NCBI GenBank assembly: GCA_947644695.1
Contig: CANSAJ010000008.1
Span: 1-45,635 of the forward strand
Reading direction: 5' to 3'
DNA from: an uncultured Bacillota bacterium
GTDB lineage: Bacteria > Bacillota_I > Bacilli_A > RF39 > UBA660
DNA: 45,635 nucleotides
Positions 1 through 10,678 of this stretch are shown here, one piece after another. Within the stretch, counting starts at the first letter, position 1. Each line of letters begins with the position of its first letter. The position numbers were made by a program, and so were the translations under genes. The notes under the pieces were generated by a model. The model was not told the DNA's origin. It did not search any database and saw only the letters and a program-made list of their open reading frames with translations.

Positions 1-1554
1 GGGAATGCAGAAGGAAGTATAGAAGGAAATAAGATAAAGATAGATAAAGTAGTAAAAGATCAAACATGTAGAATAACAACAGAGAAGATAAACTATAATT
101 TAACTATGAATATAACAGGAGGAACAATCAAACCAAGTAATGTAATGGTAGCCCATGGTGAATCAGGAGAATTCACAATAACAGCTAGTACTGGCTACAC
201 ATTAGATAATCCAACAATCACATGTACAGGAGGAGCAAGTCACACTTTAAATGGAAGTACCCTCACTATAAGTAATGTTAAGTCGAATCAGACATGTAGT
301 GTGGTATTGAAAGAAGAGTTAAAGGTGACATTAGTAGTAAATAACGGTACAGGAGGTACAACAAAAACATTAGATTCTGTAGGAGGAAGTCTGACATTTA
401 CAGGAGTATCGCCAAATAGTGGATATGTATTAGATAATGAGAATATGACATGTACAGGAGGAGCAACAATAGCTTTAAGTAGAACTACAGTAACAGTAAG
501 TAATATAAATAGTATTCAGACATGTACGATACCATCGTTAATTGCAACACTTAAAAATAAAATCTTAGCAGATCATCCAACAAGACCTGGGTCTAGACCA
601 AATTTAGATAGTGGAGTATTTACAGATGAAAATACAGGAACTCTTTATACAGCAAGCGGAAATCAGACTGAAGAAGAAAAAACAGTATATTATTTTGCCG
701 GAAATGCACAAGATAACTGGGTAAAATTTGCAGATATATATTGGCGTGTGATTAGAATAAATGAAGATGGAAGTGTAAGACTACTTTATGTAGGTCCAGA
801 TAAGAACACAGAAAAAGGATATATAGGTAAAAGTGCATATAGCACAACATATAATAATCCAATGTATGTGGGATATATGTATGGAAGTAGTGGGGATTTA
901 GCAAGTAATAGAACTAACACAACAGACTCTACAATCAAGGGAGTAATAGATACATGGTATAATAGAAAGATACAGTCAAGCTATGGCAACTATGTAAGTA
1001 AGACAGCAATCTATTGTAATGACAGGGCAAATTCAGGATATAGTATAACGACAGGCTTCTACTATGCTGCGCATAAGAGAATAGTAAATGCAAAGGCTCC
1101 ATCATATAAATGTGGAAATGACAAAAATGGTAATTTATATACAGGAACAAATGGAGCAAGTAATTTAGATAAATTCACAGTAAGTACAAGTACAGGAAAT
1201 GGAAAACTAACGTATCCAGTAGCCTTGATGACAGCAGATGAGATAGTATTTGCAGGAGGGAAATATAGTACAGATGCGCCAGCATATTATTATCACAACG
1301 CTGTCGGAGGTAGCGTAACCGGGTCCACCTCTTGGTGGACAATGAGTCCGCGTAGTTGTGGCGGTAGTAGCTCGGCCGTGTTCCCTGTGGTCAGTTCTGG
1401 CAACTTGGGTAACGCCTACGTTGGCGGTGAGCTCGGAGTACGTCCAGTCCTATCTCTAAAGTCATGCGTAAAATGGAAAAGCGGAAATGGAACGAGCGAT
1501 AATCCATACACAGTAGATACATTAGACTCAGTTTGTTCATCAGCAGAAAATTAG
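1..1554 (+). CDS. Repeat-rich surface protein with hypervariable C-terminal domain (5' end outside window)
   Basis: The frame is open from base 1, so this is the 3' part of a longer gene; the ATG at 106 lies inside a repeat and is not a convincing start. The N-terminal part shows about three copies of a roughly 70-residue beta-rich repeat, each ending in a pattern like VSNVKSNQTC or VSNINSIQTC, similar to bacterial surface repeats. From about base 560 a globular domain begins (WVKFADIYWRVIRINEDG, later LTYPVALMTADEI). It ends in the module YYY-x-GGSVTG-x-WWTMSP, a variable core, then VRPVLSLKSCVKWKSG and NPYTVD. This layout resembles C-type-lectin-like or formylglycine-enzyme-like ligand-binding domains used as variable proteins. 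The core (1351-1443) differs sharply in base composition from the rest, and the module recurs at 9927 and 10285. Extracellular location and ligand binding are inferred; no anchor or signal peptide is visible in this part. Confidence 0.75.
   Translation, partial: GNAEGSIEGNKIKIDKVVKDQTCRITTEKINYNLTMNITGGTIKPSNVMVAHGESGEFTITASTGYTLDNPTITCTGGASHTLNGSTLTISNVKSNQTCSVVLKEELKVTLVVNNGTGGTTKTLDSVGGSLTFTGVSPNSGYVLDNENMTCTGGATIALSRTTVTVSNINSIQTCTIPSLIATLKNKILADHPTRPGSRPNLDSGVFTDENTGTLYTASGNQTEEEKTVYYFAGNAQDNWVKFADIYWRVIRINEDGSVRLLYVGPDKNTEKGYIGKSAYSTTYNNPMYVGYMYGSSGDLASNRTNTTDSTIKGVIDTWYNRKIQSSYGNYVSKTAIYCNDRANSGYSITTGFYYAAHKRIVNAKAPSYKCGNDKNGNLYTGTNGASNLDKFTVSTSTGNGKLTYPVALMTADEIVFAGGKYSTDAPAYYYHNAVGGSVTGSTSWWTMSPRSCGGSSSAVFPVVSSGNLGNAYVGGELGVRPVLSLKSCVKWKSGNGTSDNPYTVDTLDSVCSSAEN
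1351..1443 (+). other. Variable core of the C-terminal domain (GC-rich, A-poor)
   Basis: This is the stretch between the constant codons for WWTMSP and VRP. By hand count it has 12 A in 93 bases (13%) and 55 G+C (59%), inside a gene and genome that are strongly A-rich on the coding strand. Loss of adenines in a bounded C-terminal segment is what adenine-specific mutagenesis by a diversity-generating retroelement leaves in a variable region. The GC-rich zone appears to extend upstream to about 1297. No template repeat or reverse transcriptase is in the window. Confidence 0.6.
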
Positions 1555-1566
1555 TATAAATAGATT

Positions 1567-1596
1567 AAAACTCCCTAATTAAAGGGAGTTTTATAA
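1567..1596 (+). terminator. Rho-independent terminator
   Basis: AAAACTCCCT (1567-1576), loop AATTAA, AGGGAGTTTT (1583-1592). Perfect 10-bp stem ending in a T run, 13 bases after the stop of the surface-protein gene. Confidence 0.85.
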
Positions 1597-1620
1597 TAAA
1601 AAAGATAAGAATTCACTTAT

Positions 1621-2181
1621 CTATAAAGACTTATTACATTTTAATGCACTTATTACTTCCTCTTTGTCTAAATTGTCTGGAGAACCAAATATATTAAATT
1701 GAATATCTACTTTTTCTCTATTTCCAAAAACTGAACGATTTGTTTCTAAAAGAGCTAAAATAGCATTTCTTTGTTCTTCAGTCAAACTTTCTTTAAAATC
1801 ATCAGGAAAAACCAAAAGACAATACCCAGCTGCAGTACCATTTTGATATATATCCTTTACATCGGCTGGTCTTACACCATAGTAAACAACATGATTAAGA
1901 GCTACTAACATTTTACCAGCTTCAAGAGAAAGTAAAGTGGTAGGAATTATTCCATTGTTGGGAATATCAAAAACTTCACCAATTTTATTTCTATTTTTTT
2001 CTCCTAAATATGCATTAATATAATCTGAAAACACAGCTGAATGATCTTCATCATCTTTTACAGGAATAAAATCTCCTTCTAAATTGATCGCATAACCTAC
2101 TTCTAAAACACTAACTTCACTGGGTTCTGCTACTCTAAACTTAATTAATTCTCCATCATAATTTTTTATTAACTTCTCCAT
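1621..2181 (-). CDS. Hypothetical protein, partner of the XRE regulator
   Basis: A 186-residue soluble, acidic protein that I do not recognise. The longer reading from 2211 is rejected: AAGGGAG lies seven bases before the ATG at 2181, which gives an N-terminus MEKLIKNYDGEL. The protein has no membrane segment, signal peptide or obvious catalytic motif. It begins 10 bases after the stop of the upstream XRE gene, so the two almost certainly form one operon. XRE regulators are often paired with a toxin, protease or prophage protein, but nothing in this sequence picks one of these. Function unknown. Confidence 0.65.
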   Translation of the reverse strand: MEKLIKNYDGELIKFRVAEPSEVSVLEVGYAINLEGDFIPVKDDEDHSAVFSDYINAYLGEKNRNKIGEVFDIPNNGIIPTTLLSLEAGKMLVALNHVVYYGVRPADVKDIYQNGTAAGYCLLVFPDDFKESLTEEQRNAILALLETNRSVFGNREKVDIQFNIFGSPDNLDKEEVISALKCNKSL

Positions 2182-2191
2182 AAAATCTCCC

Positions 2192-2434
2192 TTAAAAATT
2201 ATTTTTTTCATTACTTTTAGGACATGGTCCCATCTCTTCAGTTAACCCAATTATGTAATCAGCACTTATATCTAAAAATTTACATATTTTATACAAGTGT
2301 GTAATAGGCATAATGTTTACTCCTTTTTCATATCTAGCATACTGTTGTTGTTTAATATTTAATGCTTTGGCCATCTCCTTTTGGGTGATATTTCTAGCAT
2401 CTCTAACAAATTGTAATCTTTCGTTATAATACAT
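2192..2434 (-). CDS. XRE-family helix-turn-helix regulator
   Basis: An 80-residue DNA-binding protein. Residues 7-62 form an HTH_3 fold: ITQKEMAKALNIKQQQYARYEKG is the helix-turn-helix, followed by LYKICKFLDISADYIIGLTEE, the usual ending of a small Cro/C1-type domain. The start ATG is preceded by AGGTGAAG. It is the first gene of a two-gene minus-strand unit and is transcribed divergently from the nuclease gene at 2588. The intergenic region holds a 40-bp dyad (2464-2503) that is a natural site for autoregulation. There is no sensing domain beyond the short tail, so the signal is unknown. Confidence 0.88.
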   Translation of the reverse strand: MYYNERLQFVRDARNITQKEMAKALNIKQQQYARYEKGVNIMPITHLYKICKFLDISADYIIGLTEEMGPCPKSNEKNNF

Positions 2435-2463
2435 ATCTTCACCTAATACCTTTATAACTTGTT

Positions 2464-2503
2464 TTACAACATAAATGTTAAATTATGAACATATGTGTTG
2501 TAA
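2464..2503. promoter_or_regulatory. 40-bp dyad, likely XRE operator
   Basis: Outer arms TTACAACA (2464-2471) and TGTTGTAA (2496-2503) share one centre (2483.5) with inner arms TGTT (2476-2479) and AACA (2488-2491); 15 of 20 base pairs match. It sits about 30 bases upstream of the XRE start. XRE repressors bind such dyads as dimers. Confidence 0.6.
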
Positions 2504-2550
2504 CTACTTAATAAATCTTTTACATAATAAATCAAATTAAATATTCAAAA

Positions 2551-2569
2551 TTTATCATCTCATGATAAA
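2551..2569. promoter_or_regulatory. Perfect 8-bp inverted repeat before the nuclease gene
   Basis: TTTATCAT, CTC, ATGATAAA: a perfect dyad 18 bases before the ATG at 2588. A TATAAT at 2571-2576 lies too close to the start codon to leave the AAGAGG ribosome site in the transcript, so the working promoter is probably further upstream. The dyad may be a second operator or an mRNA hairpin next to the ribosome binding site. Confidence 0.35.
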
Positions 2570-2587
2570 ATATAATAAGAGGTAAAT

Positions 2588-3436
2588 ATGAAAAAGAAGA
2601 TAGTATTATTTGTAATGTTAATTTGTTCAATTAGTGTAATTAAACTCGATGCTAGCACAGGTCTTTTAAAAAGCGCATCAATAATAGAATGCGATGGAGA
2701 ACTTTATGGATTTCACAGCAGTGATAATCATTATCATCTCGCTGAAAAAACAGAAGATGGAAAATATAAATCAGTAGGAGATTCATTAGGTTCTAACTGG
2801 GTTTGTCCAGGAACAATAAAAAATATAAATGAAGAAAAACAACTTGAAAAAGTAACAGCAGAATTTGAAAAATGTGTAGATGGAGACACAGCTGTATTTA
2901 AAATAAATGGAGAATCAATTAAATTTAGATTTTTAGCAATTGATACACCAGAAACAGTACATCCCACTAAAGAAGTAGAAGCTTATGGAAAAGATGCAAG
3001 TGAATATACTTGTAACAAATTAACTAATGCATCTAAAATTGAAATAGAATATGAAGAAGAAAAAACAGACAAATACAATCGTAGTCTAGGATGGATTTGG
3101 ATAGATGATTCACTATTACAAAAAGAATTAATTTCTTATGGTTATGCAGAAGTAGCATATATATACGGAAATTACAAATACACAACATCACTTTGTGAAA
3201 CACAAAAAGAAGCAATAGAAAAAAATAATGGCATATGGAAAGATAGTAATAGAAAAGAAGGATACTGTAGTACTTTACGAACAGTAGAAAGAACAACTGA
3301 CAATAAAACTATTGCAACAAAAACTGAAGAAGAAAAAACAACAAAGCCCAAAGAAGAAAAAAACTATAAATATGAAGCCATAGGCGCAACTTTAATAGTT
3401 CTAATAGCTTTGATATTAAAAGTATTTAAAAGGTAA
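2588..3436 (+). CDS. Membrane-anchored thermonuclease-like protein (SNase domain)
   Basis: A 282-residue exported protein. Residues 1-22 are a signal peptide or N-terminal anchor. Residues 34-76 are a small Cys/His segment (CDGELYGFHSSDNHYH ... WVCPG) of unknown role. Residues about 90-225 are a staphylococcal-nuclease fold with the active-site set in place: D98-G-D-T, R114 in FRFLAIDTPE, D119 and E122, and R165 in KYNRSLGW. Residues about 261-279 form a C-terminal membrane helix followed by KR. It therefore probably cuts DNA or RNA outside the cell while held at the membrane, for nutrient scavenging or defence against DNA. AGAGG precedes the ATG. A small gene follows after seven bases. Confidence 0.88.
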   Translation: MKKKIVLFVMLICSISVIKLDASTGLLKSASIIECDGELYGFHSSDNHYHLAEKTEDGKYKSVGDSLGSNWVCPGTIKNINEEKQLEKVTAEFEKCVDGDTAVFKINGESIKFRFLAIDTPETVHPTKEVEAYGKDASEYTCNKLTNASKIEIEYEEEKTDKYNRSLGWIWIDDSLLQKELISYGYAEVAYIYGNYKYTTSLCETQKEAIEKNNGIWKDSNRKEGYCSTLRTVERTTDNKTIATKTEEEKTTKPKEEKNYKYEAIGATLIVLIALILKVFKR

Positions 3437-3443
3437 GTTTACA

Positions 3444-3722
3444 ATGAAAATAAATGGAAAAACTATAAACATAGAAAACTTAGTAGAAGAAATAGATATT
3501 GATAAAAATATTCCATTAAAAAGAAATAATGGCTTAATACTAAGAAATAGCCACATAGAAATACTAAAGAGAAACAACATTGATTACACTACACACTCTT
3601 CTTTAGAAAGCCTAATACTTGAAATAGAAGAAATCATAAATGACGGTAATATAGATGAAGAACTAGAATGGCTTAGTGAAGAACTAGCTGAAATAAATTA
3701 TTATAATTATACAAATAAATAA
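3444..3722 (+). CDS. Small hypothetical acidic protein
   Basis: A 92-residue protein not recognised. It is acidic, mainly helical by eye, soluble, and ends in a run of Glu, Leu and Ile (IDEELEWLSEELAEINYY). It starts seven bases after the nuclease stop, with AAAGG upstream, and is followed 11 bases later by the cation pump. It thus lies in a co-transcribed run; a link to either neighbour is only positional. Confidence 0.6.
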   Translation: MKINGKTINIENLVEEIDIDKNIPLKRNNGLILRNSHIEILKRNNIDYTTHSSLESLILEIEEIINDGNIDEELEWLSEELAEINYYNYTNK

Positions 3723-3733
3723 AAGGAGCAAAA

Positions 3734-6424
3734 ATGAAAGAAAAATGGTATCAATTAAAACCTAGTGAAATATATAAAATACTTGATACTAAAGAAAAAG
3801 GATTAACTGAAAGAGAAGCAAAAATAAGATTAGAAAAATATGGTAAAAACATCCTTCCTAAAGGTAAAAAGAAGACATTTTTCCAAGTATTCTTAAATGA
3901 ATTAAAAAGTCCAATAATATATATTTTAATAATTTCTATGATTTTATCTTTTATAGTAGGAGAAAAAATAGATGGAATATTTATACTTATGGTAATATTA
4001 CTAGACGCAACTTTAGGAAGCATACAAGAATGGAAAAGTACAAAAAATGCAGAAGCATTAGAAAAACTAATAAAAATTGAAGGTAATGTTATAAGAAATA
4101 ATGAATATAAAATGGTGTCATCAGAAGACTTAGTAATAGGAGACATTGTCATAATTGAATCTGGAACAAAAGTGCCTGCAGACCTACGTATAATAGAAGC
4201 TCAAAATTTAACAATAGACGAATCTTTATTAACAGGAGAAAGTGTCCCAAGAGAAAAAACAAGTGAATTTATTAAAGAAGATCTTATATTAAATGATAGA
4301 CGTAACATGGCTTATGTAGGTACATCAGTTATGCGAGGCCGCGCGAAAGGAGTGGTTGTAAGTACTGGAAAAAACACAGAAATAGGAAAAATAGCTACAG
4401 AAGTTTTATACAAAGAAGACACTAAAACACCTTTACAAATAAGAATGGAAAAATTTACAAAACAATTAGGAATTCTAATAGCTTTACTAGCTTTAATTAT
4501 TTCTTTTATTCTTTATTATAAAGGATATGAAAGTAAAGAAATCTTTTTCTTAGTAATAGCATTATCAGTATCAGCTATACCAGAAGGTCTTCCTGTAGTT
4601 TTAACAATGTGCTTATCAATCGCATCTAATAAAATGTCGCATAAAAATGTACTTGTAAAAAAACTAAACTCTGTAGAAGCCTTAGGAAGTGCAACAGTAA
4701 TAGCAAGTGATAAAACAGGAACACTAACTTTAAATGAACAAACAGCAAAAAAAATAATTCTACCTAATAATGATACATTTGAAATTAAAGGAAACGGTTA
4801 TAATGGAATTGGGAAAATAATACCTATAGGTAAATCAAAAATTTCCAATATAAAGCTAATAATAGACGAAGCAGTTATAAATAATGAAGCAGAATTAGAA
4901 AAAGTATCTAAGAATTGGATTAGTTATGGAGATTCTATGGATATAGCACTTCTTTCATTAGGATATAAAAATGATGTAGACATAAAAACAATAAGACAAA
5001 CTCTAAAAGGCAGAATACCATATGAATCAGACGCTGGTTTCTCAGCAGCTTTTTATGAACAAGATGACAGAATTAATGTATCAGTAAAAGGAACATTAGA
5101 AAAAATACTAAAATTCTCAAAAACTATGCTTGTAAATAAAGAAGAAAAATCTATAGATATAAAATTAATAAAAAAACAAAATGAAGAACTTGCAAGAGAA
5201 GGATTTAGAGTATTAGCTTTTGCTTCAGGTACAGTTAAAAAATTTAAAGAAAAAGAAAATTACAAAGAATCGGATATCGATGATTTATGCTTTCTAGGAT
5301 TAATAGCATTTATAGATCCTATAAGAAAAGATGCTAAAGAAGCAATAAGTAAATGCACAAGTGCAGGAATTAAAACAGTTATGATAACTGGTGATCATCC
5401 ATTAACTGCATTCACTGTCGCAAAAGAACTAGGTCTAGCTACTCATGAAATTGAAGTCGTAACAGGAATAGAAATCGAACAAGAATTTCTTAAAGGCCAA
5501 AAAGAATTTGACGAATTTATAAAAACAAAAAAAGTCTTCTCAAGAGTAACTCCTATTCAAAAATTAGAAATAGTAGAATCTTACAAAAGACAAGGTGAAT
5601 TTGTAGCTGTAACGGGAGATGGAGTAAATGATGCCCCAGCACTAAAAGCAGCTAACGTTGGAATTGCAATGGGAAGCGGAACTGATGTTGCAAAAGAAAC
5701 AGGAGCAATGATCATTACTGATGATAAATTTTCATCTATTGTAAATGGCGTAGAAGAAGGAAGAAACGCTTACAATAATGTGAGAAAAGTTACATACATG
5801 CTATTATCATGTGCTGTCTGTGAAGTTATATTTTTTATACTATCTATTTGGTTAGGTTATGATCTACCATTAACAGCAATACAACTTCTTTGGCTAAATT
5901 TAGTGACTGATGGAATACAAGATGTAGCACTTTGCTTCGAATCAGGTGAAAAAGATGTGATGAAAAGAAAACCAAGAAATCCCAATGAAAGCCTCTTTGA
6001 TAAACTATTAATGAGAGAAATAATTTTAATAGGCCTCATAATGGGGATAATAGTTTTTGGCTTATGGATTTACTTAATCGATTATAAATCTCTAAATATA
6101 ATACATGCAAGAAGCTATATATTATTACTTATGGTTTTTATACAAAATTTACATTGCTTTAACTGTAGAAGTGAAAAATTATCTATACTAAAAAAACCAC
6201 TTAAAGAAAATAAAATGTTACTATATTCAATAATCACAGTTTTATTAATTCAATTCATAGTAGTAGAAAATAGCTTTTTATCTAATATGTTAGACACTAC
6301 GCCACTACCAATCATGCATGTACTTACACTATTTTTACTAGCGACACCTATAACAATAGCCTCAGAACTATTTAAATATTTTGAAAGAAGAAAAGACCCA
6401 ATATATAGGAGTGAGAAAATATGA
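3734..6424 (+). CDS. P-type (P2) cation-transporting ATPase, probably Ca2+
   Basis: An 896-residue pump with the full P2-type layout. Residues 1-75 are the N-terminal cation ATPase domain; TGES near 167 is the actuator; the phosphorylation site DKTGTLT begins at D326; TGDHP and TGDGVNDAP (near 627) are the HAD loops; about ten membrane helices are present. In helix M4 the motif PEGLP is that of Ca2+-type pumps, and M6 has WLNLVTDG with the Asn and Asp ligands. In M5 the usual Asn of SERCA is Ala (SCAVCEV) while the Glu is kept, so the number of ions moved per cycle may be reduced. AAAGGAG precedes the start. The next gene, a Ca2+/cation exchanger, overlaps by ATGA, supporting a calcium efflux unit. 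Mn2+ or Na+ cannot be excluded. Confidence 0.93.
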   Translation: MKEKWYQLKPSEIYKILDTKEKGLTEREAKIRLEKYGKNILPKGKKKTFFQVFLNELKSPIIYILIISMILSFIVGEKIDGIFILMVILLDATLGSIQEWKSTKNAEALEKLIKIEGNVIRNNEYKMVSSEDLVIGDIVIIESGTKVPADLRIIEAQNLTIDESLLTGESVPREKTSEFIKEDLILNDRRNMAYVGTSVMRGRAKGVVVSTGKNTEIGKIATEVLYKEDTKTPLQIRMEKFTKQLGILIALLALIISFILYYKGYESKEIFFLVIALSVSAIPEGLPVVLTMCLSIASNKMSHKNVLVKKLNSVEALGSATVIASDKTGTLTLNEQTAKKIILPNNDTFEIKGNGYNGIGKIIPIGKSKISNIKLIIDEAVINNEAELEKVSKNWISYGDSMDIALLSLGYKNDVDIKTIRQTLKGRIPYESDAGFSAAFYEQDDRINVSVKGTLEKILKFSKTMLVNKEEKSIDIKLIKKQNEELAREGFRVLAFASGTVKKFKEKENYKESDIDDLCFLGLIAFIDPIRKDAKEAISKCTSAGIKTVMITGDHPLTAFTVAKELGLATHEIEVVTGIEIEQEFLKGQKEFDEFIKTKKVFSRVTPIQKLEIVESYKRQGEFVAVTGDGVNDAPALKAANVGIAMGSGTDVAKETGAMIITDDKFSSIVNGVEEGRNAYNNVRKVTYMLLSCAVCEVIFFILSIWLGYDLPLTAIQLLWLNLVTDGIQDVALCFESGEKDVMKRKPRNPNESLFDKLLMREIILIGLIMGIIVFGLWIYLIDYKSLNIIHARSYILLLMVFIQNLHCFNCRSEKLSILKKPLKENKMLLYSIITVLLIQFIVVENSFLSNMLDTTPLPIMHVLTLFLLATPITIASELFKYFERRKDPIYRSEKI

Positions 6425-7374
6425 TAATAACTTGCTTAATAATTTTACTAATTAGTCTAGTAGTATTGGTTATATACTCTGATATCTTTGTGGATGCAGC
6501 AAGCTCTTTATCTATAAGATTAAAAGTTCCTAAAATACTAATAGCACTCACAATAGCATCATTTGGAACCTGTGCTCCAGAATTAGCAATATCTTTTAAT
6601 AGTATAAGAAGTGGAAACGTAGACATGACCATTGCTAATGTAATTGGAAGCTCTATTGTAAATATCCTATTTATAGTTGGACTTGCTGCAATAGTAAAAC
6701 CAATTAAAATAAAAGATAGAACTACAAAAAAAGAACTACCTTTATTAGTACTAATAACAACAACTTTCTTTTTCTTAATAAGCGATACTATATTCAAAAA
6801 AAATGCTATAAATGGACTAAGTAGACAAGATGCTATAATACTTCTATGTGGCTTCTTTGTATTTATGTTTTATATATTAATAGTAGTTAGAAAAAACAAA
6901 AATGATGAAAAAGAAAAAGCAAAATACTCTCTAAAAAAATCTATAATATTAATTATAATAAGTTTACTGGCAATAATTATTTCAAGTGATATAGTAGTAA
7001 ATAATGCAGTACTTCTAGCTGAAGAAATTGGAATAAGCCAAAAAGTAATTGCAATGACCATAATAGTTATAGGTACTTCTCTTCCTGAATTAATAATGAC
7101 AGTTGAATCAGCAAGAAAAGGTGAGTTTGACATGGCTGTTGGAAACATAATAGGAACTAATATATTTAATATATGTATAGTACTAGGACTACCTATTGCT
7201 ATTTATGGAAGTGTATTCTCTAATTCATTTAATTTAATAGATACTACCATTGTACTTTTATCCGCGCTTATATTTTACTTATTTGGAAAAAGTGGAAAAG
7301 AACTTTCCAGAAAAGAAGGCATATTAATGGTAATAGTATTTATATTGTATTATATATATGTTATTTTTAGCTAA
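6421..7374 (+). CDS. Ca2+/cation antiporter (CaCA superfamily, YrbG-like)
   Basis: A 317-residue membrane protein with about ten helices and the two inverted alpha repeats of the family: SFGTCAPELAISFNS with a following NVIGSSIVNILF, and GTSLPELIMTVESA followed by NIIGTNIFNICIVLG. The acidic residues in the two PEL motifs are the ion ligands in this family. It uses the Na+ or H+ gradient to move Ca2+ across the cytoplasmic membrane. Its ATG overlaps the stop of the P-type ATPase in ATGA, so translation is coupled and the two act together in calcium efflux. A terminator follows. Confidence 0.92.
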   Translation: MIITCLIILLISLVVLVIYSDIFVDAASSLSIRLKVPKILIALTIASFGTCAPELAISFNSIRSGNVDMTIANVIGSSIVNILFIVGLAAIVKPIKIKDRTTKKELPLLVLITTTFFFLISDTIFKKNAINGLSRQDAIILLCGFFVFMFYILIVVRKNKNDEKEKAKYSLKKSIILIIISLLAIIISSDIVVNNAVLLAEEIGISQKVIAMTIIVIGTSLPELIMTVESARKGEFDMAVGNIIGTNIFNICIVLGLPIAIYGSVFSNSFNLIDTTIVLLSALIFYLFGKSGKELSRKEGILMVIVFILYYIYVIFS

Positions 7375-7386
7375 ATCTTATTTTAT

Positions 7387-7415
7387 AAATGTAGCAAAAG
7401 TGTTACATTTTTCTT
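7387..7415 (+). terminator. Terminator of the calcium-transport operon
   Basis: AAATGTA (7387-7393) pairs with TACATTT (7404-7410) and is followed by a T-rich tail. It lies 13 bases after the exchanger stop and directly before the typA promoter. Confidence 0.65.
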
Positions 7416-7443
7416 TACAATAGATTTAAATAAGTGTTATAAT
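7414..7443 (+). promoter_or_regulatory. typA promoter with extended -10
   Basis: TTTACA (7414-7419), 18-base spacer, TATAAT (7438-7443), with TG at 7435-7436 giving TGTTATAAT. The typA start follows 31 bases later. Confidence 0.8.
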
Positions 7444-7474
7444 ACTCTAGGTTTTAAAAGAGGTGGAATATAAA

Positions 7475-9283
7475 ATGAAAATAAGAAACGTTGCAATAAT
7501 TGCCCATGTAGATCATGGTAAAACAACATTAGTAGATGAATTATTAAAACAAAGTGGAACATTTAGAGAAAATGAATCTCATGATGACAGAGTAATGGAT
7601 TCCAATGATATAGAAAAAGAAAGAGGAATAACTATTCTTGCAAAAACAACAGGCGTAAAATATAAAGATTATAAGATTAATATAGTTGATACTCCTGGAC
7701 ATGCAGACTTTGGTGGAGAAGTAGAAAGAATAATGCACATGGTTGATGGTGTAATACTTCTAGTTGATGCAAGAGAAGGAACAATGCCACAAACAAGATT
7801 TGTTTTAAAAAAAGCTTTAGAAGCAAAACTAAAACCAATAGTAGTCATCAATAAAGTAGATAGAGAAAATGTAAGAATAAGTGAAGTAATTGATGATGTA
7901 TTAGAATTATTCATTGATTTAGGTGCCACAGATGAACAAATTGATTTCCCTATAATCTATGCAAGTGGTTTAAACGGAACCTCAAGTTATGAAGAAGATC
8001 TAAGTACACAAAAACATACAATGGAACCAATCTTTGAAACAATAATAAATACTATACCAGAACCAAAAGGAAATGAAAATGAACCTTTACAATTTCAACC
8101 TGCATTATTAGATTATAATGATTACGTAGGTAGAATAGGTATAGGTACAATAACAAGAGGAAAAATTAAAGTTGGACAAAATGTAAGCTGTGTAAGACTA
8201 GATGGAAGTATAAAACAATTTAGAGTACAAAAACTATTTGGTTTCATGGGCATAAAAAGATTAGAAATAGAAGAAGCAAGCTGTGGAGAAATAATTGGAA
8301 TTTCTGGTTTACCAGACATATCTGTTGGAGAAACTATTTGTGAAGCAGGAAAAGAAGAAGCATTACCTATTTTAAAAATAGAAGAACCAACTCTACAAAT
8401 GACATTTGGTGTTAACACTTCTCCATTTGCAGGAAAAGAAGGAGATTTATTAACAGCAAGAAAAATAGAAGAAAGACTTATGAAAGAACTTGAAAGTGAT
8501 GTTTCACTTAAAGTTGAACAAAATGATGCTGAGTCATGGATAGTAAGTGGCCGTGGAGAACTTCATCTATCTATATTGATTGAAAATATGAGAAGAGAAG
8601 GCTTTGAATTACAAGTTTCAAAACCAGAAGTCATCATTAAAGAAATAGATGGAATAAAATGTGAACCATACGAAGAAGTAATGATAGAAGCTCCAACTGA
8701 TACTATTGGTTCAGTCATAGAAAGTCTAGCATCTAGAAATGGTCAAATGGTTAATATGAAAGCCTTTGAAAATAACACTAAACTAGAATACATTGTACCT
8801 TCTCGTGGATTAATAGGCTTTGTAAATGAATTCTTAATTTTAACAAAAGGTTATGGAATAATAAATCATACTTTTAAAGAATATGGTCCTTTAACAGCTG
8901 GAAACATAGGAGAAAGAAAACTAGGCGTTTTAGTCTCTATGGAAAATGGTAAATCTACTGCATATGGGTTAGGTGCTTTAGAAGACCGTGGAATTATGTT
9001 CATTGAACCAGGTGTAGAAGTCTATGAAGGAATGATAGTAGGCGAAAATAACAGAGATAATGACTTAGCTGTTAACGTAACAAAATCAAAAAATCTTACA
9101 AACACAAGAAGTGCAAGCAAAGATCACACAGTAGTTTTAAAAAGACCAAGACAACTTACACTTGAAAGTGCTTTAGATTACATAAACACTGATGAATTAG
9201 TAGAAGTAACTCCAAAAGGATTTAGATTAAGAAAGAAAACTCTTAATACTGAAAAAAGAAAAAAAGAGGATTCAAGAAAATAA
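7475..9283 (+). CDS. typA: GTPase TypA/BipA
   Basis: A 602-residue ribosome-associated translational GTPase of the EF-G/LepA class, needed for 50S assembly and growth at low temperature or under stress in other bacteria. The G domain shows AHVDHGKTTL, RGITI, DTPGHADFGGEVER and NKVDR. EF-G-like domains II, III and V follow, and the C-terminal domain includes the segment GLIGFVNEFL. The length matches the family. A GTG at 7463 is in frame, but AGGTGG at 7461-7466 is the ribosome site for the ATG at 7475, so the shorter start is chosen. queH follows after five bases and is probably co-transcribed. Confidence 0.97.
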   Translation: MKIRNVAIIAHVDHGKTTLVDELLKQSGTFRENESHDDRVMDSNDIEKERGITILAKTTGVKYKDYKINIVDTPGHADFGGEVERIMHMVDGVILLVDAREGTMPQTRFVLKKALEAKLKPIVVINKVDRENVRISEVIDDVLELFIDLGATDEQIDFPIIYASGLNGTSSYEEDLSTQKHTMEPIFETIINTIPEPKGNENEPLQFQPALLDYNDYVGRIGIGTITRGKIKVGQNVSCVRLDGSIKQFRVQKLFGFMGIKRLEIEEASCGEIIGISGLPDISVGETICEAGKEEALPILKIEEPTLQMTFGVNTSPFAGKEGDLLTARKIEERLMKELESDVSLKVEQNDAESWIVSGRGELHLSILIENMRREGFELQVSKPEVIIKEIDGIKCEPYEEVMIEAPTDTIGSVIESLASRNGQMVNMKAFENNTKLEYIVPSRGLIGFVNEFLILTKGYGIINHTFKEYGPLTAGNIGERKLGVLVSMENGKSTAYGLGALEDRGIMFIEPGVEVYEGMIVGENNRDNDLAVNVTKSKNLTNTRSASKDHTVVLKRPRQLTLESALDYINTDELVEVTPKGFRLRKKTLNTEKRKKEDSRK

Positions 9284-9288
9284 ATGTA

Positions 9289-9894
9289 ATGAAAATAAAT
9301 TATGATAAATATTTAGAAGAAATAATAAAAGAAAATGAACAAAAAGGAATAAAACCTAAATTACTTTTACATACTTGCTGTGCACCATGTTCCTCAAGTG
9401 TAATTGAAAGATTAGGTAAAAACTTTAACATAACAGTATTTTATTACAATCCTAATATTGAACCAAAAGAAGAATATGAACACAGAAAAGAAGAACAAAA
9501 AAGATTCTTAAAAGAAATTAATATTGGAATTAAATTTGAAGATTGTGACTATGATAATGAAGAGTTTAAAAATATATCAAAAGGATTAGAAAGTCTTCCT
9601 GAAGGTGGATTCAGATGCCATGAATGCTATAAATTAAGACTTATAAAAACAGCTCAAAAAGCTATAGAATTAAACTATGATTACTTTGGAACAACATTAA
9701 CAGTTAGTCCTTATAAAAATAGTCAAGTTCTAAATCAAATAGGAAAAGAAATAGAAGAGAAATATAACATAAAATATCTATTTTCTGATTTTAAGAAAAA
9801 AGAAGGATACAAAAAATCAATCGAATTATCAAAAGAATACAATTTATATAGACAAAACTATTGTGGCTGTTTATATTCAAAAAATACAGAGTAA
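9289..9894 (+). CDS. queH: Epoxyqueuosine reductase QueH
   Basis: A 201-residue enzyme catalysing the last step of queuosine biosynthesis, reduction of epoxyqueuosine in tRNA wobble position 34. QueH signatures are present: HTCCAPC (Cys30, 31 and 34), RCHECY, and the C-terminal YCGC. These Cys residues bind an iron-sulfur cluster and a second metal site in the family. The length is typical. It starts five bases after the typA stop with no strong ribosome site nearby, so translation probably depends on readthrough of ribosomes from typA. The stop codon lies inside the following terminator stem. No other queuosine genes are in the window; lone QueH can serve salvage. Confidence 0.94.
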   Translation: MKINYDKYLEEIIKENEQKGIKPKLLLHTCCAPCSSSVIERLGKNFNITVFYYNPNIEPKEEYEHRKEEQKRFLKEINIGIKFEDCDYDNEEFKNISKGLESLPEGGFRCHECYKLRLIKTAQKAIELNYDYFGTTLTVSPYKNSQVLNQIGKEIEEKYNIKYLFSDFKKKEGYKKSIELSKEYNLYRQNYCGCLYSKNTE

Positions 9895-9915
9895 AAATTT
9901 ACTCTGTGTTTTCAT
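9886..9915 (+). terminator. Terminator overlapping the queH stop
   Basis: ACAGAGTAAA (9886-9895) pairs perfectly with TTTACTCTGT (9898-9907), followed by a T-rich run. The TAA stop at 9892-9894 is part of the left arm. Confidence 0.8.
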
Positions 9916-9926
9916 TTTCTTCTAAA

Positions 9927-10223
9927 GAGGCGACGCCATATTATTATAATGATTCAGGAGGTAGTGTTACTGGAAATAGTTATTGGTGGACAATGAGTCC
10001 GTTTACTTTTTATGGAGATGCTGGTTCTGCATATGTGTTTAATATAGGCGGTTCAAGTGCTTCTGGTTATTTAGGTCATCCGAATGGCGTTGCTGGTAAT
10101 GCAGTAATCCGCCCAGTTTTATCTCTAAAGTCATGTGTCAAATGGAAAAGTGGAGATGGAACAAGTGATAATCCATACACAGTAGATACATTGAGTGCAG
10201 CTTGTAGTACTGCAGAAAATTAA
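9927..10223 (+). pseudogene. Promoterless cassette B: copy of the variable C-terminal module
   Basis: In the frame ending at 10223 the sequence reads a module like the end of the first gene: YYYNDSGGSVTG, YWWTMSP, a different core (10002-10109), then RPVLSLKSCVKWKSG, NPYTVD and a final STAEN. There is no start codon, ribosome site or N-terminal scaffold; the only ATG in frame, at 9861, is inside queH. The cassette follows a terminator, so it is unlikely to be expressed. The constant flanks are nearly the same as in the first gene, while the core differs in length and sequence. It is either a decayed gene end or a silent donor cassette. Confidence 0.7.
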
Positions 10224-10284
10224 TTTATTATTAATTATCAACTATAATATAATAAATAAGGATAATATTGGTAAATAAGTATGA

Positions 10285-10515
10285 ATGAGTCCGTGTGACT
10301 GGGATGGCGCTGCTTCGCTTGTGTTCTACGTATATGGTTCTAGTGGTCCTGGCTTCTTAAATGACAATAATGTTAGTCATTCTTTGTATGGAGTACGTCC
10401 AGAAATTTCTCTTAATATACAGAAAGTTCATAGTAATACTATAGTAGAACTAACTAAAGAGAAACAAATATTATTCAGTGCTTTAAATAAGCAAAAAATA
10501 GAAACATTAAAATAA
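10285..10515 (+). pseudogene. Cassette C: isolated variable core joined to unrelated tail
   Basis: Homology starts exactly at ATGAGTCCG (10285), the first constant codons before the core, and ends just after GGAGTACGTCCA (10390-10401), the constant codons after it. The core (10294-10389) is a third version, beginning CDWDGAAS. The frame then runs through about 40 unrelated residues to a stop at 10515. An ATG is present, but there is no usable ribosome site. Hand count gives 43% G+C and 18% A for 10294-10398, again unlike the surroundings. It lies 62 bases after cassette B in the same orientation. Confidence 0.6.
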
Positions 10516-10678
10516 TAAGGATTAGTATATTTAGAAAATTCTTACTTAATTAATGTTTTTTTAAAAGTAAAAATTAATAGTTTTATTTTACATAAAAGTA
10601 CATATAATAAATACATATAATAATAATTTAATAAATGTAAAAAAGTATACAAAATATAATTAGTACCTATAAAATGCC

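What the first reader, a model, noticed from the sequence alone, without database searches (positions are those of the whole stretch)
1297..10515. One expressed gene end and two promoterless cassettes with different variable cores
Three copies of a WWTMSP-core-VRP module occur: in the surface gene, at 9927-10223 and at 10285-10515. The edges are nearly constant while the cores differ in sequence and length (31 to 37 codons). Copies B and C lack starts and scaffolds. This looks like a surface-variation system, either silent cassettes feeding gene conversion (as for pilin or vls genes) or variable regions of a diversity-generating retroelement. The two models predict different partners.
Basis: partly seen in the sequence, partly recalled or inferred. 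Interest (0 to 1): 0.85.

Follow-up and report, generated by a model that had tools for sequence, protein, structure and literature searches.

The report
Mutagenic retroelement with many template cassettes
A small gut bacterium carries a gene-diversifying retroelement whose short template, usually a single copy beside its enzyme, appears here as arrays of about thirty copies that probably reseed more than thirty surface-protein genes, one of which ends in this window.

Summary
The 1.25-Mb genome has 37 protein matches to the module and five reverse-transcriptase matches. One is a DGR-type RT (GLPIGNMTSQ, YMDD) with an Avd-like gene upstream and a MutS_I gene downstream. I found no template beside it. 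Template-type cassettes form arrays instead: 31 units in five places, 29 with a scored RNA hairpin; a congener has 70 hairpins. Copy A is the variable end of a target gene, copy B a truncated target end, copy C an adenine-poor template-type unit.

Adenine-directed mutation: 18 of 18 and 16 of 16 mismatches at template A in relatives' best pairs, 12 of 14 here. Another genus has the canonical layout: one template with the same hairpin beside avd-RT. Against: 29 of 35 cores here have no matching cassette in the broken assembly, and the other pairs are mixed.

The parts
1..1554 (+). Copy A: 3' part of a surface-type target gene (the contig starts inside it)
   Evidence: Open frame, DUF6273 match over cut-off; best of 37 module matches is itself
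1333..1350 (+). Left constant edge TGGTGGACAATGAGTCCG of copy A
1351..1440 (+). Variable core of copy A (90 nt, 59% GC in a 27.5% GC contig, 77% NNY codons); no 90-nt cassette found in the assembly
9927..10223 (+). Copy B: 5'-truncated end of a target gene, without start or scaffold
10002..10109 (+). Core of copy B (108 nt)
10243..10248 (+). TATAAT box in the leader of copy C
   Evidence: Sequence shows it directly; function inferred
10285..10402 (+). Copy C: template-type unit, ATGAGTCCG (10285-10293), core 10294-10395 (102 nt, 3 AAY codons: adenine-poor), CGTCCAG 10396-10402
10390..10563 (+). Spacer shared with the other cassettes
   Evidence: 78% identity to the consensus spacer, E 8.5e-28
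10396..10474 (+). RNA hairpin element of copy C
   Evidence: Model R1, 84.8 bits (this sequence is among the 70 the model was built from)

Best explanation
The three copies belong to a DGR whose template repeat is found not beside the RT but multiplied into arrays elsewhere. A cassette is a leader (with a TATAAT box in 16 of 31), a template core of 99-133 nt and a spacer that forms a conserved RNA hairpin. Inferred working: the unit is transcribed; RT and Avd bind the hairpin and copy the core into cDNA, misincorporating opposite adenines; the cDNA replaces the variable core of one of about 35 surface genes, guided by the shared edges (ATGAGTCCG ... GGAGTACGTCCAG). Templates of several lengths let one RT write different cores into different genes. 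Shown here: RT, Avd-like, MutS_I, cassettes and targets; adenine-directed differences in the clean pairs; hairpin covariation; the canonical single-template layout in another genus. Not shown: transcription, retrohoming, function of the proteins. Copy A is a target, B a remnant of a target end, and C an adenine-poor template unit behind it, the gene-then-cassettes order also seen at C6 and in the congener G002.
For: DGR-type RT and Avd-like gene. Best TR/VR pairs: G068 18 of 18, G002 16 of 16 and 19 of 20, this genome 12 of 14 mismatches at template A. In 11 best gene-cassette pairs of four relatives 163 of 283 mismatches are A in the cassette and 36 A in the gene (one self-match dropped). 31 cassettes; hairpin covariation. 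In G068 the same hairpin lies directly after the template, beside avd and RT. All 8 A-rich cassettes carry the TATAAT box, against 8 of 23 A-poor ones.
Against: Only 6 of 35 gene cores have a same-length cassette at 65% identity or more, and four of these have mixed mismatches (11 of 18, 13 of 30, 19 of 31, 11 of 24 at A). In G002 only 5 of 21 comparable cores reach 75% at A. Copy A itself has no matching cassette. Avd matches are below curated cut-offs. Three genus genomes with module genes, two of them with clear cassettes, gave no RT match (G001, G005, G007, 74-82% complete). The promoter scan was near chance.
Confidence: 0.9

Rival explanations
1. Silent-cassette gene conversion only (vls or pilin type): cassettes recombine by homology into expressed genes and the RT is a bystander.
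For: Arrays of silent units; gene C6:55102 is a 119-of-120 copy of cassette C49:918; a G006 cassette looks like a join of two others.
Against: Adenine-directed differences in the clean pairs; a covarying RNA hairpin in the units that is also found beside an RT-avd locus with a single template.
Confidence: 0.05
2. The adenine-poor cassettes (23 of 31 here) are simply old templates that have decayed or been overwritten once and no longer act; only the 8 A-rich ones matter.
For: All 8 A-rich cassettes have the TATAAT box against 8 of 23 A-poor; junctions other than CGTCCAGTAATTT go with A-poor cores in this genome (A-rich: 7 of 10 intact, 1 of 21 altered); two A-poor G006 cassettes that are 83% alike differ without adenine bias.
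Against: An A-poor cassette (C49:918) matches a gene core at 119 of 120 sites; the hairpin is kept in most A-poor units. The junction association was not significant in G005, and the pooled test mixes genomes.
Confidence: 0.55
3. An ordinary multigene family with diverged copies, pseudogene ends and repeats; no active variation system.
For: Most cores are too diverged to show a donor; copy B is a truncated end.
Against: Adenine bias in the clean pairs, RT-Avd locus, templates and hairpin.
Confidence: 0.02

Closest known systems
Bordetella phage BPP-1 DGR (bRT, Avd, TR, structured spacer, VR in mtd); PMC12875486 and PMC3240598, passages seen
   Same: DGR-type RT with Avd-like neighbour, templates changed at A, structured RNA spacer directly after the template, target variable at its C-terminal end
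   Different: BPP-1 has one TR between avd and brt; here about 31 cassettes unlinked to the RT and about 35 targets; a MutS_I gene follows the RT
DGRs with several VRs or TRs (Yan 2019, PMC6642488, passages seen; DiGReF 2012, PMC3521204, passages seen)
   Same: Multiple targets per RT are known (271 of 948 DGRs have several VRs); a few have more than one TR (examples with 2 and 6)
   Different: In that survey 216 of the 271 have a single TR; I saw no description of arrays of tens of TR units each with its own hairpin
Borrelia vls silent-cassette system (PMC11499132, abstract in a listing only)
   Same: Contiguous arrays of silent cassettes homologous to the variable part of a surface gene
   Different: One expression site there; here many targets, adenine bias, an RNA hairpin in each unit and an RT-Avd locus

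Membership tests
Diversity-generating retroelement (DGR) | RT of DGR type (SQ in motif 4, YMDD) | tested here: met
   GLPIGNMTSQ and YMDD at C12:6345-7466; best solved-structure match 8ub7, E 1.5e-26, which I recall, from no call, as the BPP-1 DGR RT. No RT tree was built.
Diversity-generating retroelement (DGR) | Accessory protein such as Avd | tested here: met
   C12:6017-6361 matches NF033474 DivGenRetAVD (6e-8) and PF22296 bAvd (2.4e-6) over nearly their whole length, both below curated cut-offs
Diversity-generating retroelement (DGR) | TR/VR pair whose mismatches lie at TR adenines | tested here: met
   18 of 18 in G068, 16 of 16 and 19 of 20 in G002, 12 of 14 here; many other pairs mixed
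Diversity-generating retroelement (DGR) | TR near the RT (usual, not essential) | tested here: not met
   No hairpin match in the RT-bearing stretches L008, L216, L228, L229, L306, L308; met in G068 of another genus
Diversity-generating retroelement (DGR) | Structured RNA spacer 3' of the TR | tested here: met
   91.4% of cells paired, 110 both-side changes against 5-35 when slid; structure drawn by eye from these sequences
Diversity-generating retroelement (DGR) | IMH/IMH* pair and target hairpin | tested here: inconclusive
   Junctions differ between A-rich and A-poor cassettes; hairpins with an ACCY loop follow three targets
Diversity-generating retroelement (DGR) | Target of C-type-lectin fold | tested here: inconclusive
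   Only a DUF6273 match; predicted model useless, mean pLDDT 31.5
Diversity-generating retroelement (DGR) | Mutagenic retrohoming in cells | not testable with these tools
   No experiment or reads at hand
vls/pilin-type gene conversion | Single expression locus fed by silent copies | tested here: not met
   35 gene cores on many contigs
vls/pilin-type gene conversion | Unmutated segmental transfer from silent cassette to gene | tested here: inconclusive
   One 119-of-120 gene/cassette pair and one mosaic among G006 cassettes

The most novel reading that the evidence does not exclude
A two-tier variation system: the DGR writes adenine-mutated cores into silent template cassettes as well as into genes, so that cassettes lose adenines and become a stored library of fixed variants; ordinary recombination then loads these stored cores into any of about 35 surface genes and shuffles them. 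Mutagenic retrohoming and vls-like conversion would share the same units. Hints: cassettes C6:54162 and C6:53827 differ at 11 sites, 10 of them A in the second; gene C6:55102 is an almost unmutated copy of an A-poor cassette, and a G006 cassette is a mosaic.
Probability: 0.25. Interest if true: 0.88.

Novelty: new variant of a known kind. Interest (0 to 1): 0.74.

Why it matters
In the DGR papers whose passages I saw, one template usually serves one or a few targets. Here one RT appears to serve tens of hairpin-bearing templates and tens of surface genes in a 1.25-Mb genome, and clear cassettes occur in seven of nine genomes of the genus (the other two were not read closely). The units are natural replicates for asking which parts of the template RNA matter, how a template is kept from being overwritten by its own mutagen, and whether a bacterium can store variants. 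A member of another genus keeps the simpler single-template layout for comparison.

Tried and rejected
Other RT matches rejected as the DGR enzyme: C3 is a group II intron RT (TIGR04416 over cut-off); C4 a retron RT-protease; C45 UG31-like; C33 a partial retron-like RT.

A template beside an RT: adenine-tolerant alignment of 6 modules with five RT-bearing stretches found only the C33 target gene itself.

Phage origin: no relative of the RT among viral contigs and no match to two DNA patterns. Rfam: nothing at the gathering score, two loci searched. Promoter scan near chance. Structure prediction with three sequences: mean pLDDT 31.5, dropped; no fold search was made.

Hairpin controls that did not favour it: 154 of 500 shuffles reached the number of pairs with a change on both sides and 20 of 500 the number of pair types; two inner pairs are unpaired in 39 and 44 of the 69 distinct rows.

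Script errors: (regex found nothing; redone). (cores cut at the wrong CGTC; redone, where one G008 'gene' was a cassette matched to itself and is dropped, leaving 11 pairs, and where the stricter regex caught 11 G002 cores against 26). (wrong string for the intact junction, tests empty; its printed lists were retyped; G006, whose junctions differ, was left out there). One of 71 spacers was left out of alignment A2. One search looked at cores from 20 fetched regions and five other loci, not at all 34 G002 matches.
Full report
What the window shows. The 45,635-base window is one whole contig (C8) of a 1,254,696-bp, 56-contig genome, 94% complete; its GC is 27.5%. It opens inside a surface-type gene that ends at 1554 with the module WWTMSP-core-VRPVLSLKSCVKWKSG. 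A second copy of such a gene end, without start or scaffold, lies at 9927-10223, after another gene. A third, shorter copy begins with ATGAGTCCG at 10285 and has a different right-hand side. The core of copy A is 59% GC with 77% NNY codons.

The module across the genome. The 84-aa module gave 37 matches: 32 strong ones and five weak ones on C12, C3, C6, C35 and C3. Many lie about 1 kb inside a contig end, so the assembly breaks in these repeated genes. The constant 18-mer had 29 matches at up to 3 mismatches and none for the reversed control.

The retroelement. Of five RVT_1 matches, four over the cut-off, the one at C12:6345-7466 has GLPIGNMTSQ and YMDD. Its best solved-structure match is 8ub7 (E 1.5e-26), which I recall as the BPP-1 DGR RT. 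The gene upstream (C12:6017-6361) matches DivGenRetAVD and bAvd along nearly their whole length, below the curated cut-offs. The gene downstream has a MutS_I domain over the cut-off, and so has its G002 counterpart. The other RTs are a group II intron RT, a retron RT-protease, a UG31-like RT and a partial retron-like RT.

The cassettes. No template was found beside the RT (no hairpin there either). Pattern and DNA searches found arrays: C6:51102-54922 (11 units), C6:175-1778 (6), C12:30007-31391 (5), C49:302-3851 (8) and C8:10286-10394 (copy C), 31 in all. Labels can be off by one base. Units mostly lie 302-338 bp apart (one 204; two wider gaps inside arrays). A TATAAT within 60 nt upstream is present in all 8 cassettes with 6 or more AAY codons and in 8 of the 23 others, which have 0-4.

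Adenine bias. In this genome gene C3:41018 differs from cassette C12:30958 at 14 of 101 sites: 12 are A in the cassette, none is A in the gene. Only 6 of 35 gene cores have a cassette of the same length (or one base longer) at 65% identity or more. The other pairs are mixed: C38:1405 11 of 18, C52:2840 19 of 31, C53:1020 13 of 30, C3:38723 11 of 24 at cassette A; C6:55102 has one mismatch, at A. The congener G002 has six templates in a row behind a gene end. The core of the target beside its RT differs from one of them at 16 sites, all A; another core at 20 sites, 19 A. Of 26 G002 cores, 21 had a same-length template and 5 of these reached 75% at A. The pairs are the best of several, so p values (about 1e-5 to 2e-11) are only a guide.

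The hairpin and the link to the RT. Seventy spacers (69 distinct) from seven genus genomes fit one hairpin that I drew by eye from them: 91.4% of cells paired (47-63% with partners slid by 1-3 columns) and 110 cells with changes on both sides (5-35 slid). No shuffle of 500 reached the paired percentage, the both-side cells or the covariation score; 154 reached the number of pairs with both-side changes and 20 the number of pair types; two inner pairs mostly fail. The covariance model built from them gave 29 elements in G000 and a match in 3 of 108 family genomes: G000, G006 and G068 of another genus. In fetched stretches it found 130 elements, 29 in G000, 70 in G006, 31 elsewhere; its 70 training sequences are among them. 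The G068 match is not a training sequence. It lies directly after the template found there, followed by a bAvd-like gene (below cut-off) and one open frame holding both RVT_1 and MutS_I. The adjacent target differs from that template at 18 sites, all A. This ties the cassette spacer to a DGR independently of the arrays.

Genus and hosts. Nine of nine genus genomes have a match to the spacer query at E 0.01 or better, but those of G001 and G004 are weak and were not read closely; I read cassettes in seven. The module has 6 to 37 matches per genome in nine of nine. The RT is found in six of the nine and in 28 of 117 genomes searched. The four named records with the closest RTs (76-79% identity) are uncultured Bacilli or Firmicutes MAGs.

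Signs of a second route. Gene C6:55102 and cassette C49:918-1044 agree at 119 of 120 sites, with an 88-nt identical run. That cassette holds 28 adenines and one is changed. In the clean pairs 12 of 30 to 19 of 32 template adenines are changed, so a plain recombination is the easier reading, from a single case. G006 cassette C12:20724 shares a 36-nt start with one cassette and a 56-nt stretch with another. Cassettes C6:53827 and C6:54162 differ at 11 sites, 10 of them A in the first, so cassettes too seem to receive mutated cores. In this genome 7 of 10 cassettes with the junction CGTCCAGTAATTT are A-rich against 1 of 21 others; in G005 the difference is not significant, and the pooled test mixes genomes.

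Literature. I saw passages, not whole papers: PMC8144416, PMC4891356, PMC10907252, PMC3521204, PMC6642488, PMC12875486, PMC4372165, PMC3240598; PMC11499132 only as an abstract in a listing. Yan 2019 reports 271 of 948 DGRs with several VRs, 216 of them with one TR, and examples with 2 and 6 TRs. None of my searches listed a paper that I could recognise as describing arrays of tens of templates. The library lacks most subscription journals and preprints.

Verdict. Copies A, B and C are a DGR target end, a remnant of a target end and an adenine-poor template-type unit. The system is a DGR by its RT, Avd-like gene and adenine bias in clean pairs, and a new variant in its amplified template arrays away from the RT.

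Noticed in passing
L008:7479-7892 (C12), L229:2951-3361 (G002), L313:2196-3728 (G068): A MutS_I-domain gene follows the DGR RT; in G068 it is in one open frame with the RT.
   Followed up: partly
L119 about 5041-5066 (C6), L222 about 5410-5390, L313 about 1523-1552: Three targets that stand next to templates are followed by a hairpin whose loop reads ACCT or ACCC while the stems differ; most other target ends in the scan showed no such hairpin.
   Followed up: partly
L210 (G006:C46) cassettes at 9075, 9748, 10084: Three cassettes with identical cores in one array, suggesting recent duplication of units or an assembly repeat.
   Followed up: no
L009:1476-1721 (C33): A small helix-turn-helix gene directly follows a target gene (HTH_3); a similar one seems to follow the target beside the RT in G002 (by eye).
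   Followed up: no
L009:1961-2998 (C33): A retron-like RT whose match covers only residues 15-148 of 345, near a target gene: probably a truncated or fused RT.
   Followed up: no
L002:1363-3024 (C4), L010:2099-3685 (C45): A retron type XI RT-protease and a UG31-like RT, candidate defence genes, in the same small genome.
   Followed up: no
L122 (C3:38723, C3:45400): Targets of a different-looking gene (YWTMTSN) whose 3' core part matches a cassette while the 5' part is gene-specific, as a partial replacement from the 3' side would give.
   Followed up: no
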